Origin: Komagataeibacter sp. FNDCF1
GTDB lineage: Bacteria; Pseudomonadota; Alphaproteobacteria; Acetobacterales; Acetobacteraceae
Length of the DNA stretch: 64,000 nucleotides
Assembly: GCF_021295335.1 (NCBI RefSeq)
Contig: NZ_JAIWOT010000001.1
Span: 2,017,001-2,081,000, forward strand
Direction: 5' to 3'
Positions 33,326 to 55,822 of the stretch are shown piece by piece (the first letter of the stretch is position 1; the number at the start of each line of letters is the position of its first letter). Below the pieces are notes generated by a model. It was not told the DNA's origin. It did not search any database and saw only the letters and a program-made list of their open reading frames with translations. Both the position numbers and the translations under genes were made by a program.

Positions 33326-33607
33326 GCAGGGTATCCTGTAAAACCGCGGTCGTGGATGAAAATCATGTCTTTTTTGAAACTACTGAATTTAAATATTCTT
33401 TAAAATTTTTCCGTGGACAGAACATCTCTCGTGAATTTCAACCACTCCAAAATATAGACCCTGCATTACATTTGATACGATGCCGCCCGTCCATGCCATG
33501 GCCATGCCTGCCGCCCCTGTCCGCATGGCAGGCGAGCGGGCGGCCACCATCCCCTTTCCACCCCGGATCATGGCATACTGCGCGACCACCCGAGGAGGAA
33601 CGGACTC

Positions 33608-51125: not shown

Positions 51126-51572
51126 TTACCACCAGCCGCCGCCCCATGGGCCGCCCCAGCCTCCACCCCAGCCCCACATGCCCCAGTTCCATGAGGCATC
51201 CTGGTACATATCCGCTGTCATCTGCTGCTGGTCAGCCAGATTCTGGGCCTGCACATAGGACATGTAGCGCCCATAGGCCGCCTGGTTGCCGACATACAGG
51301 CAATTGCACACCTTCGGGTCGGAATAGATGTACAGCATGTGATCCCCGAACGATTTCTGCAAAAACCGGTTGGGGGGAAGCTTCTGCAACATTGCCTGCC
51401 GCTCGGGATCATTGGCGGGACGCACGACAAAACCGGCGGCGGCGAGGCTGTTTTCCTTATCCGTGATCTGGTCGCGCACGCTTTCGCACGCTGTAAGCCC
51501 GATGGACGCGACAAGCAGCAGTGCACCGCCTGTATGAAGATGTCCCAGCGCCCGTTTTATTCCCATCGACAT
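51126..51572 (-). CDS. Lipoprotein with Trp/Gly-rich C-terminus
   Basis: A 148-residue ORF with a lipobox (SIGLTAC) after a hydrophobic leader, so a lipid-anchored envelope protein. The middle has an ordered-looking segment (LPPNRFLQKSFGDHMLYIYSDPKVCNC). The last ~20 residues are almost wholly Trp, Gly and Pro. This tail is unusual and may bind carbohydrate or sit at a membrane surface. The start 51572 is used; 51605 adds eleven residues. Confidence 0.65.
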   Translation of the reverse strand: MSMGIKRALGHLHTGGALLLVASIGLTACESVRDQITDKENSLAAAGFVVRPANDPERQAMLQKLPPNRFLQKSFGDHMLYIYSDPKVCNCLYVGNQAAYGRYMSYVQAQNLADQQQMTADMYQDASWNWGMWGWGGGWGGPWGGGWW

Positions 51573-51761
51573 GCTGCCTGTTTCCATCCTGGTTGATGTG
51601 CGCATCCTGTCCCATGCAACGCGCGGAATAAAGATGTGACGGAAAAAACATATGCATTATTCCGACAGAGTTTGATTTATCTCATGTCCGGGCCGGAAAC
51701 ATCAATGCCATAACACAGGGGCGATGGGGGCATCGCATATCGAATCATCACTTAAAACCTT

Positions 51762-51787: not shown

Positions 51788-52420
51788 ATTTTTCTTTATA
51801 CGGACAGTCGCATGGCCATACCGGCCATGAAGGACAGGAACAGCAGCGTTGCCTGTACTCAGGCAGCCGTTACCGGCACCCGTGTCTCCTCCACTGCCCC
51901 GAGTGCCGGGATGGCCTCGTCACGCAGTACATAACCCTGCCCCCATACGGTGGCGATGAGATGGCCCGCCCCGGCCACCTGCAGTTTCTTGCGCAGCTTG
52001 CAGATGAAGACATCGATGATCTTCATTTCCGGCTCATCCATGCCGCCATACAGGTGATTGAGGAAGGCATCCTTGGTCAGGACCATGCCCTTGCGCAGCA
52101 GCAGCAGCTCCAGGATCATGTATTCCTTGCCCGTCAGGTGCACACCCTGCCCCTGTACGCTGACCTGCCGGCTCCCCAGGCACAGTTCCAGCTGGCCCGC
52201 GCGCAATGTCGGCTCGCTATACCCCTTGGAGCGGCGGATGACCGCCTGCATCCGCGCCGTCAGTTCCATCGATTCGTAGGGGCGGGTCACATAGTCATCC
52301 GCGCCGGTGGAAAATGCCTTTACCTTTGCGGTGGCGGCCTTCTCTTCCGAAAGGACCATGACCGGGGTCGGCACCCGTGCGGCACGGCTGACACGGATGA
52401 CTTCAAACCCGTCCATGTCA

Positions 52421-53350
52421 GAGCCCGATCCGAAAGTTTTTCAACCCTGACAATGCCTTGCTGTCCGTCGTGTGAGCATTCGGATTGAGGCGATCAATGT
52501 CCATGCGGTTGAGGAAGCAATGGATTGTTCCCAATCTTTGGCGAGCCGCCTGCATCGTCCCAGCCATGCGAATGTCCGTTCCACCACCCAGCGACGCGGC
52601 AGGATCTGAAAACCCTTCACCGTATCGGACCGCCTGATGATTTCGAGGGTCCATTTTCCCATGGAGGCGAGCGCGGATCGCAATTTGTCGCCAGCATAGC
52701 CGCCATCAGCGAAGATGTGGCGCAGCCAGGGAAAGCGCCTGCGTATCGCTGCCAGAACATCAACGGCCCCATCACGGTCCTGGATATCAGCGGCATGAAC
52801 GAGGAGAAAGATCAGGAAGCCGCAGGTATCCGTCACGATATGGCGCTTGCGGCCCTTGACCTTCTTCCCCGCGTCATAGCCCGAAATCCCGCCGCTTTCC
52901 GTGGTTTTCACCGACTGGCTGTCAATCACGCCCGCGCTCGGAGAGGCGTCACGTCCCTCGATCTCGCGCAGGCTCATGACCAGCACCGTATTCATGACCT
53001 CGAACACTCCGGCATCACGCCAGGCGTAAAAATAGCGCCTGATGGTCGAGACCGGCGGAAAGCATTTCGGCAGCAGACGCCACGCACACCCGGCCGAGGC
53101 TATGTAGAGCATCGCATTGACCACCTCGCGCATATCCGTCGTGCGCGGACGACCGCCCCGTTTCGCCGGGGGCACAAATGGCATGATCAAAGTCCACTCC
53201 CCGTCCGTCATGTCCGATGGATATCGCAATCTTTCCCGGCTATACTCGCGCCGGGCAATACCAGTCCATGTCACCATTCACTCCATCTCTCTGCAAAGAC
53301 GGATGAATCACAACAGGCTGGTATTGTTCAAAAACTTTCGGATCGGGCTC
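52421..53350 (-). mobile_element. IS1031-type insertion sequence (IS5 family), 930 bp
   Basis: The element is bounded by 24-bp inverted ends, GAGCCCGATCCGAAAGTTTT and its reverse complement, matching at all but one of the 24 positions. A 3-bp TCA duplication flanks it (52418-52420 and 53351-53353), the TNA pattern of the IS1031 subgroup. It encodes one transposase. Length, ends and target choice agree with IS1031 of Komagataeibacter. It splits the CtrA-like gene and looks intact. Confidence 0.96.
52441..53277 (-). CDS. IS5-family transposase (IS1031 subgroup)
   Basis: A 278-residue DDE transposase. The catalytic Asp residues are in VIDSQSVKT and IFADGGYAG, and the Glu is in RWVVERTFAWLGRCRRL, which fits the Y/R-E signature of the IS5 family. 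The N-terminal helical region (MTDGEWTLIMPFVPPAKRGG) is typical. The reading frame is intact, so the element may be active. It is transcribed in the same direction as the gene it interrupts. Confidence 0.96.
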   Translation of the reverse strand: MVTWTGIARREYSRERLRYPSDMTDGEWTLIMPFVPPAKRGGRPRTTDMREVVNAMLYIASAGCAWRLLPKCFPPVSTIRRYFYAWRDAGVFEVMNTVLVMSLREIEGRDASPSAGVIDSQSVKTTESGGISGYDAGKKVKGRKRHIVTDTCGFLIFLLVHAADIQDRDGAVDVLAAIRRRFPWLRHIFADGGYAGDKLRSALASMGKWTLEIIRRSDTVKGFQILPRRWVVERTFAWLGRCRRLAKDWEQSIASSTAWTLIASIRMLTRRTARHCQG

Positions 53351-53643
53351 TCAGGCAGATTTACGTCCATGACCGCCAGGTCATAGTTATAGGATTTTAA
53401 CATTCCGAGGGCATCATGACCGGTATCGACATGATCGACTGTAAATCCGGCCTTTTCCATATGCCGGGTGGTCTCATCGACTTTTCGGGCATTGGGCTCA
53501 ACTAGCAAAATTCTCATATCGACCATCCAGTAGATATTTGTTCTTATCTACCTATACGTGCGCGTGATCGCTACAACAACCTAAAGTTGACGATATATTA
53601 GCGGTAATTTATTCGTAAATCGTATTTCTAATTCTTTATTTAA

Positions 53644-53658
53644 TTAATAATCAGTTAA
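53644..53658. promoter_or_regulatory. CtrA-type box upstream of the CtrA-like gene
   Basis: TTAA (53644-53647), seven bases, then TTAA (53655-53658) give an exact TTAA-N7-TTAA CtrA box, 127 bp before the start at 53517. The surrounding DNA is AT-rich, so chance occurrence is possible. Autoregulation of ctrA through such boxes is known in Caulobacter. Confidence 0.45.
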
Positions 53659-53663
53659 TTCAT

Positions 53664-54458
53664 TTATATCCTGATGCCCACCGCATGGTCCAGCGGGCCG
53701 GAGCCCGCGCCATAACCCGGGGCCGCGGCAATCGCGTTGCGCACATAGGTCCGTGCGCGCACCACGGCATCGCGCAACGTCATGCCCTGCCCCAGTCCCG
53801 TGGCAATGGCGCTGGCAAGTGTGCAGCCCGTACCATGGGTATGACGGGTGGCGATGCGGGGGCTTGCGAATGTCTCCATCCTGCCGCCCTGTTCCACCAG
53901 CACATCCACCAGTTCATCACCCTGTATATGGCCGCCCTTGAGCAGCACGGCGCGCGCGCCCAGCGCCAGCAGCTCGCGCGCCGCGTCCTGCATGTCCTCC
54001 CGCCGGGCAATGGGGCGGCCCAGCAGGGCTTCGGCCTCGGGCAGGTTGGGGGTCAGGACGGTGGCAAGCGGCACCAGCCGGTCGCGCAGGGTCGCCAGCG
54101 CGCTGTCATGCAGCAGCGCGGCTCCACCCTTTGCCACCATGACCGGATCAAGCACATAGGGCACGTCGGCGGATGTCATCAGCACGGCGGCGATCGCCTC
54201 GATCACCTCCGGTCGGTCAAGCATGCCGCTCTTGAAGGCATCGACCCCCAGGTCATCCATGACGCAGCGCATCTGCGCCACGATGAATTCGGGCGCGACC
54301 GGCATGACGTCGTGCACGCCAAGCGTATTCTGTGCCGTCAGCGCCGTGATGGCGGTCATGGCAAAGCCGCCCAGCACCGTCACGGTCTTGATATCGGCCT
54401 GAATACCGGCGCCGCCGCCGCTATCGCTCCCGGCCATGATGAGAATACGCCCGCGCAT
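53664..54458 (-). CDS. thiD: Hydroxymethylpyrimidine/phosphomethylpyrimidine kinase ThiD
   Basis: A 264-residue ribokinase-fold enzyme that phosphorylates HMP and HMP-P in thiamine synthesis. ILIMAGSDSGGGAGIQADIKT is the substrate-binding N-terminus, YVLDPVMVAKGG and RHTHGTGCTLASAIA the ATP site and catalytic Asp region. It starts 5 bp after the glmM stop and is probably transcribed from that gene's promoter. No other thiamine gene is adjacent and no TPP riboswitch was seen. Confidence 0.95.
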   Translation of the reverse strand: MRGRILIMAGSDSGGGAGIQADIKTVTVLGGFAMTAITALTAQNTLGVHDVMPVAPEFIVAQMRCVMDDLGVDAFKSGMLDRPEVIEAIAAVLMTSADVPYVLDPVMVAKGGAALLHDSALATLRDRLVPLATVLTPNLPEAEALLGRPIARREDMQDAARELLALGARAVLLKGGHIQGDELVDVLVEQGGRMETFASPRIATRHTHGTGCTLASAIATGLGQGMTLRDAVVRARTYVRNAIAAAPGYGAGSGPLDHAVGIRI

Positions 54459-54463
54459 GAACT

Positions 54464-55822
54464 TCAGCCCGCCATCTGGATCGCGTTGATGGATTCGCAC
54501 ATATCTTCCACCACTTCCTTTACCAGTGCTTCGTCTTCCGCTTCCACCATTACACGCACCAGCGGTTCGGTGCCGCTTTCACGCAGCAGCAGGCGCCCAC
54601 GATCACCCAGCCGCTTTTCCGCAGCCATGCGGGCTTCATTCACCTGCGGGTCGTGCAGCGGGCTCCTGCCGACAAAACGGATATTGCGCAGCAGTTGCGG
54701 ATAGGGCCTGAACATGCGGCAGACCGCACTGGCGGGGCGGCCTGTCTCCACCACTTCGGCCAGCACCTGCAGGGCCGCGACCAGCCCGTCTCCCGTTGTG
54801 GCGAAATCGGACAGCACCATGTGCCCGGACTGTTCGCCCCCGATATTGGCACCCAGTTCGCGCATCTTCTCCACCACGTAGCGGTCCCCCACCGCCGTGC
54901 GCACCAGTTCCAGCCCCTGCGTTTCCAGATAGCGCTCCAGCCCCATGTTGGACATGACGGTGGCCACGATATGCCGCCCGGACAGCCGTCCCTGCCGCGC
55001 CCAGGAGGTAGAGATCAGCGCCAGGATCTGGTCTCCGTCGATCAGCCGCCCCTTTTCATCGGAAATCAGCACCCGGTCCGCATCCCCATCAAGCGCTATC
55101 CCGATATCGGCCCGATGGCGCAGCACCGCGGCACACAGGGCTTCGGGCCGGGTGGAGCCGCATCCTTCATTGATGTTGATACCATCGGGGTCACAGCCGA
55201 TGCGCACCACTTCCGCCCCCAGTTCCCACAGCGCGGTGGGAGCCACGCGGTAGGCTGCGCCATTGGCGCAGTCGATGACAATGCGCAGCCCGTCCAGCCG
55301 CAACCCGCGCGGGAAGGAAGACTTGGCATTTTCCACATACCGGCCGGCCGCGTCATTCAGGCGCGACGCGCGACCGATCTGGTCGGGGGCGGCCAGCCTG
55401 TCGGTCAGGTCCATGCCCATATCCGCCTCGATCCCGGCTTCCGTCTCATCCGAAAGCTTGAAGCCATCCGGTCCGAACAGCTTGATGCCGTTATCACCAT
55501 ACGGGTTGTGGGAGGCCGATATCATGACCCCCAGATCCGCCCGCAGCGAGCGGGTAAGCATGGCGATGGCCGGGGTAGGCATGGGGCCGACCAGCGTCAC
55601 ATCCATGCCCGCCGACAGGAAACCCGAGACAAGCGCGCATTCGATCATATAACCCGACAGGCGCGTGTCCTTGCCCAGCAGCACGCTATGGCGATGCGTG
55701 CCCTGAATGAACCGCAACCCTGCGGCCTGGCCCAGTTTCTGCGCTACTTCGACAGTCATTGGAAAACGGTTGGCGGTGCCCCGGATTCCATCCGTGCCGA
55801 ACAGCTTTCTTGTCTTTACCAT
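54464..55822 (-). CDS. glmM: Phosphoglucosamine mutase
   Basis: A 452-residue phosphohexomutase converting glucosamine-6-phosphate to glucosamine-1-phosphate for UDP-GlcNAc synthesis. The phosphoserine loop is [15 protein letters not shown], the metal loop ALDGDADRV, and sugar- and phosphate-binding blocks GGEQSGH and [14 protein letters not shown] follow. Length is standard. It is followed by thiD and preceded upstream by folP, the common folP-glmM order next to ftsH. Confidence 0.97.

What the first reader, a model, noticed from the sequence alone, without database searches (positions are those of the whole stretch)
51859..53517. CtrA-family regulator cleanly split by an intact IS1031-type element
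Deleting 52421-53350 and one TCA copy rejoins a continuous 241-residue frame with the codon GAC at the joint, giving VNLPDMDGF, which fits the CtrA receiver. The 24-bp ends, TCA duplication and whole transposase imply a recent insertion into a gene for a normally important regulator. Either the regulator is dispensable here, or a second copy exists, or the downstream half (ATG 52416 onward, receiver remnant plus DNA-binding domain) is still made.
Basis: seen in the sequence. Interest (0 to 1): 0.75.

Follow-up and report, generated by a model that had tools for sequence, protein, structure and literature searches.

The report
Jumping gene splits decaying CtrA regulator
In a cellulose-making vinegar bacterium a small jumping gene has recently cut the only copy found of the regulator gene ctrA in two, and relatives suggest that this regulator had already lost its phosphate switch and is repeatedly being discarded in the genus.

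Summary
A 930-bp IS5-family element (52421-53350) with 25-bp ends and a TCA duplication splits a 241-codon frame; 26 identical copies, this one included, lie in the genome, so the insertion is recent (inferred). No second ctrA was found: the best-scoring other homologue is 37% identical. The interpretation needs correcting. The receiver was unusual before the insertion: Asp8 is Pro, Lys101 is Arg, and position 51 (the phosphoacceptor) is D, E or N in Komagataeibacter and Glu in the Acetobacter, Gluconacetobacter and Novacetimonas rows examined. None of 41 genomes of these four genera gave a ChpT or CckA orthologue at the thresholds used; 6 of 8 other genomes gave at least one. Among 19 Komagataeibacter genomes ctrA is broken in 4, by four different lesions: this IS, two 1-bp frameshifts and a deletion of the DNA-binding domain. 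Both neighbour genes are unbroken wherever covered. Where intact, ctrA is under purifying selection (dN/dS about 0.1). Best reading: ordinary IS inactivation of a dispensable CtrA already uncoupled from its phosphorelay. The wider pattern, natural Glu51 CtrA and repeated gene loss, is the interesting part. No expression, phosphorylation or phenotype data exist here.

The parts
53354..53517 (-). 5' part of ctrA (ATG 53517; residues 1-54 and part of codon 55); in the present DNA the frame runs on into the IS and stops at 53308, 69 aa
   Evidence: Pfam Response_reg 1.3e-7
53351..53353 (.). TCA, copy of the target-site duplication
52421..53350 (-). 930-bp IS5-family (IS1031-type) element
53326..53350 (.). 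terminal inverted repeat
52421..52445 (.). terminal inverted repeat
52441..53277 (-). transposase, 278 aa, same strand as ctrA
52418..52420 (.). TCA, other copy of the target-site duplication
51859..52420 (-). 3' part of ctrA; ORF from ATG 52416, 185 aa: second half of receiver and whole winged-helix DNA-binding domain
53644..53658 (.). perfect CtrA box TTAA-N7-TTAA, -141 to -127 from the ATG; perfect at about this place in 16 of 18 Komagataeibacter upstream regions that reach that far
53576..53589 (.). 14-bp near-palindrome ACAACCTAAAGTTG, invariant in 18 of 18 upstream regions aligned; operator of an unidentified regulator (inferred)

Best explanation
An active IS5-family (IS1031-type) element recently jumped into the receiver half of the only ctrA found in this Komagataeibacter genome and inactivated it. 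The cell tolerates this because CtrA in this genus is no longer the phosphorelay-driven essential cell-cycle regulator of Caulobacter: the kinase CckA and phosphotransferase ChpT are gone, the receiver has lost its phosphorylation pocket, and the gene is repeatedly lost. Shown: the split, identical IS copies, no second copy by search, no ChpT/CckA orthologue at the thresholds used, altered residues, four different lesions in the genus. Inferred: recency, loss of function, dispensability, phosphorylation-independence of the intact orthologues.
For: Split, TCA duplication, joined frame. 26 identical IS copies. One ctrA only. Genus: 4 of 19 broken by four different lesions. The two neighbours, thiD (TIGR00097 above cut-off) and an unnamed 159-aa ORF, are each one open match in 17 of 17 relatives in which they are covered (18 relatives; one cut by a contig end in each case) and open in the window; 4/19 against 0/36 gives Fisher p = 0.011. 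Receiver residues. ChpT: 0 of 41 genomes of Komagataeibacter, Novacetimonas, Gluconacetobacter and Acetobacter by Pfam model, and nothing over 28 bits there by a family-built profile; 5 of 8 other genomes positive. CckA orthologue at E 1e-70 and at least 53% identity: 0 of 41, 5 of 8 others, the query's own source included.
Against: No transcript, protein or phenotype data. The gene is otherwise conserved (276 of 297 family genomes match at 1e-35) with dN/dS about 0.10 (receiver) and 0.07 (DNA-binding domain) among 15 intact Komagataeibacter genes, so it does something useful in most species. The 3' half could still act. The two 1-bp frameshifts are in draft assemblies and could be errors. The p-value rests on two neighbour genes in the same related genomes. 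Position 51 is Asp in this very gene. Every one of the 49 genomes, G000 included, has some CckA-like hybrid kinase, and Brilli et al. count cckA as present in comparable organisms (PMC2877005), so absence of CckA depends on how orthology is drawn.
Confidence: 0.75

Rival explanations
1. The 3' half is made as a 185-aa protein by read-through of ctrA and transposase transcription and restart at ATG 52416, and works as a receiver-free, constitutive CtrA DNA-binding domain.
For: Transposase and ctrA lie on one strand; ATG 52416 lies 24 nt past the transposase stop. The DNA-binding domain is whole and modelled confidently (blocks 86-93 apart from one at 66), and the receiver remnant too is modelled at 80-88. 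Neither half has a stop or frameshift, and dN/dS to G004 is low in both.
Against: No convincing ribosome site before 52416 and no promoter on that strand by consensus scan; half a receiver that starts at a helix and keeps two strands is probably unstable (inferred; the low pTM of 0.55 does not decide it); absence of decay is equally expected from a recent insertion.
Confidence: 0.15
2. The insertion marks a subpopulation or laboratory-selected clone of a species whose wild type has intact ctrA; it has no biological weight of its own.
For: IS1031 elements are known to be linked to loss of cellulose production and to insert in cellulose genes (PMC6559022, passages; PMC13068021, passages). The element is present in 26 identical copies. 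One genome per species is held, so strain variation could not be seen.
Against: Other genus genomes carry other lesions in the same gene, so loss is not special to this clone.
Confidence: 0.25
3. The CtrA of these bacteria is phosphorylated by another kinase, with Asp51 or a neighbouring residue as acceptor, so the phosphorelay is replaced, not lost.
For: G000 has a CckA-like hybrid kinase (L160, REC-PAS-HisKA-HATPase-REC, 247 bits to the CckA model). Asp51 is present in 9 of the 18 genus genomes tabulated (7 Glu, 2 Asn).
Against: That kinase sits about 5 kb from a CheA-like gene and is only 33-35% identical to the outgroup CckA; Asp8 and Lys101 are missing in every genus row and Asp51 is Glu or Asn in half of them; no histidine-kinase ATPase domain lies near ctrA.
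Confidence: 0.1

Closest known systems
CtrA (OmpR/PhoB-type response regulator, Caulobacter/Brucella type)
   Same: Domain order, conserved DNA-binding domain, CtrA box TTAA-N7-TTAA before its own gene, no kinase gene beside it; receiver aligns end to end with Brucella CtrA 4qpj (4qpj named in the listing as cell cycle response regulator CtrA, organism recalled).
   Different: Asp8 to Pro and Lys101 to Arg, variable residue 51, no ChpT or CckA orthologue at the thresholds used, gene broken in 4 of 19 genus genomes.
Atypical (phosphorylation-independent) response regulators, such as ChxR (recalled)
   Same: Receiver kept with lost phosphorylation residues; presumably acts without phosphate.
   Different: Here it is a CtrA-type protein and the change runs through one bacterial clade; independence of phosphate is inferred, not shown.
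Laboratory allele ctrA(D51E)-delta-3 of Caulobacter (PMC5189948, passages)
   Same: Glu at the phosphoacceptor, as in natural Acetobacter, Gluconacetobacter, Novacetimonas and the K. xylinus group.
   Different: Natural, and found in genomes without recognisable relay; the laboratory allele also has a C-terminal change; activity of the natural forms not tested.
IS1031 family (IS5 group) of Komagataeibacter
   Same: 930 bp, short terminal repeats, 3-bp TNA duplication, IS5-family transposase.
   Different: No difference found; no IS1031 reference sequence was compared.

Membership tests
CtrA | NCBIfam CtrA model NF045991 (curated cut-off 350 bits; 'Rhodob' in its name) | tested here: not met
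   Best of all models but under the cut-off: 256 bits for the window's 3' half, 312 and 303 for intact orthologues L036 and L048
CtrA | Orthologue by tree: groups with canonical CtrA | tested here: inconclusive
   Inside the genus clade (99*) of a tree of 69 of 146 rows on hand that includes canonical Asp51 rows of the family, but no Caulobacter row and several long branches
CtrA | CtrA-type DNA-binding domain | tested here: met
   GGMDEPEMKIIDVFICKLRKKL block invariant or nearly so across 20 family rows; Trans_reg_C 2e-20; that this block is typical of CtrA is recalled
CtrA | Phosphorylatable receiver (Asp8, Asp51, Ser/Thr79, Lys101) | tested here: not met
   P8, D51, S79, R101 in the window gene; roles of residues 8, 79 and 101 recalled from response-regulator structures
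CtrA | CckA-ChpT phosphorelay in the same genome | tested here: not met
   No ChpT; no CckA orthologue at 1e-70, though a weaker CckA-like kinase exists
CtrA | CtrA box before its own gene | tested here: met
   53644-53658. Against: genome-wide the motif is not enriched, 7 sites against 19 of the reversed pattern, and none of 7 Novacetimonas/Gluconacetobacter upstream regions has it
IS1031 (IS5 group) | IS5-family transposase | tested here: met
   NF033580 256 bits, cut-off 110
IS1031 (IS5 group) | TNA 3-bp duplication, about 930 bp, short inverted repeats (recalled for IS1031) | tested here: met
   19 of 20 copies examined, of 26
IS1031 (IS5 group) | Sequence identity to named IS1031 | not tested
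   no IS reference sequence was fetched
Atypical response regulator | Works without phosphorylation | not testable with these tools
   needs biochemistry

The most novel reading that the evidence does not exclude
In acetic acid bacteria the master regulator CtrA was cut loose from its CckA-ChpT phosphorelay: kinase and phosphotransferase were lost, the phosphoacceptor became Glu51 (the change used in the laboratory as part of an active allele), and the protein went on as a phosphate-independent transcription factor under purifying selection. In Komagataeibacter the pocket decayed further and the gene is now being lost again and again, this IS insertion being one case caught in the act.
Probability: 0.55. 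Interest if true: 0.7.

Novelty: new variant of a known kind. Interest (0 to 1): 0.5.

Why it matters
CtrA is the textbook example of an essential regulator run by phosphorylation. A clade that keeps its DNA-binding domain under selection after losing both upstream proteins and the phosphorylation pocket would give a natural series (Asp51 with relay, Glu51 without relay, decayed pocket, broken gene) for asking what CtrA does without phosphate and when it becomes dispensable. For cellulose producers it is a practical warning: sequenced Komagataeibacter strains may differ in a global regulator.

Tried and rejected
Second ctrA copy in the genome: not found (nine other matches at 26-39% identity, the best-scoring 37%). 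ChpT missed by a divergent model: a profile built from four ChpT proteins of the outgroup genomes still gave nothing over 28 bits in the 41 genomes of the four genera, and those weak hits lie in frames of 652-963 aa. L160 as CckA: rejected on identity, architecture and its position near a CheA-like gene. CtrA-box regulon of the genome: only 7 perfect boxes, fewer than the reversed control; neighbours include an acyltransferase, a 2OG-oxygenase and a GINT1-type protein, too thin to call a regulon. Promoter/terminator consensus scan gave nothing on the ctrA strand. Other strains of the species: none searched, one genome per species is held. Tree: 69 of the 146 rows on hand were used; near-duplicates, further named relatives, and L194, L197, L201, L202, L204 and L207-L215 were left out, the last because some are truncated, very divergent or may be other paralogues.

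Full report
What is there. The window is a stretch of the 3.53-Mb main contig of an unnamed Komagataeibacter genome (3.74 Mb, 5 contigs; genus placed by the tree). On the minus strand, between an unnamed 159-aa ORF (51126-51605, no Pfam or NCBIfam match) and thiD (53664-54500; TIGR00097 313 bits, cut-off 205), lies a gene split by a 930-bp element. Its ends are inverted repeats, TCA flanks both sides, and removing the element with one TCA gives a 241-codon frame. The element encodes a whole IS5-family transposase. It is present in 26 identical copies; of 20 whose flanks I examined, 19 have a TNA duplication and one (L003) does not. The joined gene shows no excess of amino-acid changes against its near relative G004: dN/dS about 0.06 in the receiver and 0.09 in the DNA-binding domain. 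The insertion is therefore probably recent.

Is there another copy? None found. Searching the whole genome with the 3' half gave ten matches: this gene and nine at 26-39% identity. Six of the nine lie within about 2 kb of a histidine-kinase ATPase domain (coordinates), so they look like ordinary two-component pairs.

Relatives. Of 19 genus genomes, 18 match at 1e-50. The order thiD-ctrA-ORF is kept in the 16 of 18 relatives in which both neighbours are covered. Fifteen have a full reading frame of 244-245 codons as counted. Four do not. G000 has the IS. G009 (L047) has lost one base in the DNA-binding domain, leaving a 171-aa frame. G016 (K. xylinus K2G30, L046/L063) has one extra A in an A-run and loses the C-terminal part of the winged helix. 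G002 has residues 1-114 and then 175 bp where the window has about 480, so the DNA-binding domain is deleted. As a control, thiD and the 159-aa ORF are each one open match in 17 of 17 relatives in which they are covered (thiD of L037 ends a few residues early; one match to the ORF, L042, runs to the contig end) and open in the window; 4/19 against 0/36 gives p = 0.011. These genomes are related and the two frameshifts are in draft assemblies, so I take this as support, not proof.

The receiver. I aligned 97 fetched orthologue rows, L031-L127, with the joined gene (several rows are the same genome reached by two tools, and L048-L127 are the best 80 of 266 confirmed stretches, so the sample leans to near relatives). 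Of 43 rows L069-L127 outside the four genera, 37 have E7, D8, D51 and K101; the exceptions are L074 and L077 (Q7), L076, L094 and L105 (G8), and L116, a MAG with Glu51. 4qpj, deposited as CtrA, has the same motifs. All nine Acetobacter-labelled genomes used have Glu51, with Lys101 in all but L078. Gluconacetobacter (nine) has Glu51 with Asp8 changed to Gly, His or Tyr. Novacetimonas including G. entanii (four) has Glu51, Pro8, Arg101. Komagataeibacter has Pro8 and Arg101 in every row, and Asp, Glu or Asn at 51 in 9, 7 and 2 of 18 genomes tabulated; G002's remnant has Asp. Further unnamed genera of the family also carry Glu51. A quick tree of 69 rows needs five changes of residue 51; it has long branches and no certain root, so the order of changes is not settled. 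Asp51 in the window gene may be a return from Glu.

The phosphorelay. I searched 49 genomes, 41 of the four genera and 8 others, for ChpT with Pfam PF10090 and with a profile from four ChpT proteins of those others. Dedicated ChpT genes were found in 5 of the 8 others and in none of the 41; of 14 control genomes only Caulobacter was positive for PF10090. The CckA model NF046026 gives hits at 1e-60 in all 49, none over its cut-off, stronger in most of the others. An outgroup CckA-like protein as query finds orthologues (at least 53% identity) in 5 of the 8 others, its own source genome G054 included, and nothing at 1e-70 in the 41. Of seven genomes with a canonical receiver, four have both genes, one ChpT alone, one CckA alone and one (Acidisphaera rubrifaciens) neither; the eighth, KSS8, has Asp51 but Gly8 and neither gene. 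So loss of the relay does not always bring loss of the residues, but none of the 29 Glu51 genomes tested has the relay. Both absences rest on similarity thresholds.

Is intact CtrA still used? By sequence, yes. Among 15 intact Komagataeibacter genes mean dN/dS is 0.105 (receiver) and 0.068 (DNA-binding domain). The upstream region keeps a perfect CtrA box near -142 in 16 of 18 Komagataeibacter regions that reach that far, our own and G002 included; it is broken in G009 and in K. melaceti, whose gene is intact, and L050 is cut short. None of seven Novacetimonas or Gluconacetobacter regions has a perfect box within 200 bp. A second block, CAACTTTAGGTTGT, is invariant in 18 of 18 aligned rows. 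Self-regulation is likely in this genus, but genome-wide the box is not enriched: 7 sites against 19 of the reversed pattern.

What becomes of the 3' half. Transposase and ctrA lie on one strand; ATG 52416 is 24 nt past the transposase stop, and the preceding bases show no convincing ribosome site to my eye. The 185-aa product is modelled with a good DNA-binding domain and half a receiver (mean pLDDT 80, pTM 0.55, 20-row alignment). I give a working fragment about 15%.

Literature. Loss of phosphorelay members in Rhodospirillales is known: Brilli et al. 2010 (PMC2877005, passages) report members missing to different degrees and no ChpT, but say that cckA is present, which differs from my stricter result; PMC8116508 (passages) finds ctrA, gcrA and ccrM in 72-82% of genomes but chpT, cckA and divL in 27-36%, and cites ctrA deletions without effect on growth in R. 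centenum and M. magneticum. ctrA(D51E)-delta-3 is described as stable and active in Caulobacter (PMC5189948, passages). IS1031 insertions linked to cellulose loss are known (PMC6559022, PMC13068021, passages). I found no report of natural Glu51 CtrA or of broken ctrA in Komagataeibacter in searches of an open-licence library; of the listed papers I opened only those named here, PMC12733265 (background mention only), PMC9756655, PMC6528568, PMC13214618 (no mention in the main text) and PMC13028821, all as passages; the rest I saw as listings.

Verdict. The IS insertion itself is ordinary for this genus. What lifts it is the target: a CtrA without its relay that most species still keep under selection and several have lost.

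Noticed in passing
window 53576-53589: Near-palindrome ACAACCTAAAGTTG invariant in 18 of 18 Komagataeibacter ctrA upstream regions aligned; looks like an operator of another regulator.
   Followed up: partly
window 33389-33403: Second perfect TTAA-N7-TTAA in the window (2 found, 0.01 expected), 64 bp before a 2OG-Fe(II) oxygenase ORF (L233).
   Followed up: partly
L204, L212-L214 (unnamed family genomes): CtrA-like proteins whose receivers have lost most phosphorylation residues while the C-terminal domain is still recognisable; may be further decay or other paralogues.
   Followed up: no
L116: A MAG outside the four genera with Glu51 but otherwise canonical receiver (EDD, K101); its relay genes were not tested.
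   Followed up: no
L063:about 5428: K. xylinus K2G30 frameshift lies in a run of seven A; could be a phase-variable site.
   Followed up: no
L160, L155, L166 (G000:C1:1353-1360 kb): Cluster with a CheA-like protein and two hybrid kinases, L160 being the nearest thing to CckA in this genome.
   Followed up: partly
L003: One of 20 exact IS copies examined has unlike flanks (TAA/TCA), suggesting recombination between copies.
   Followed up: no
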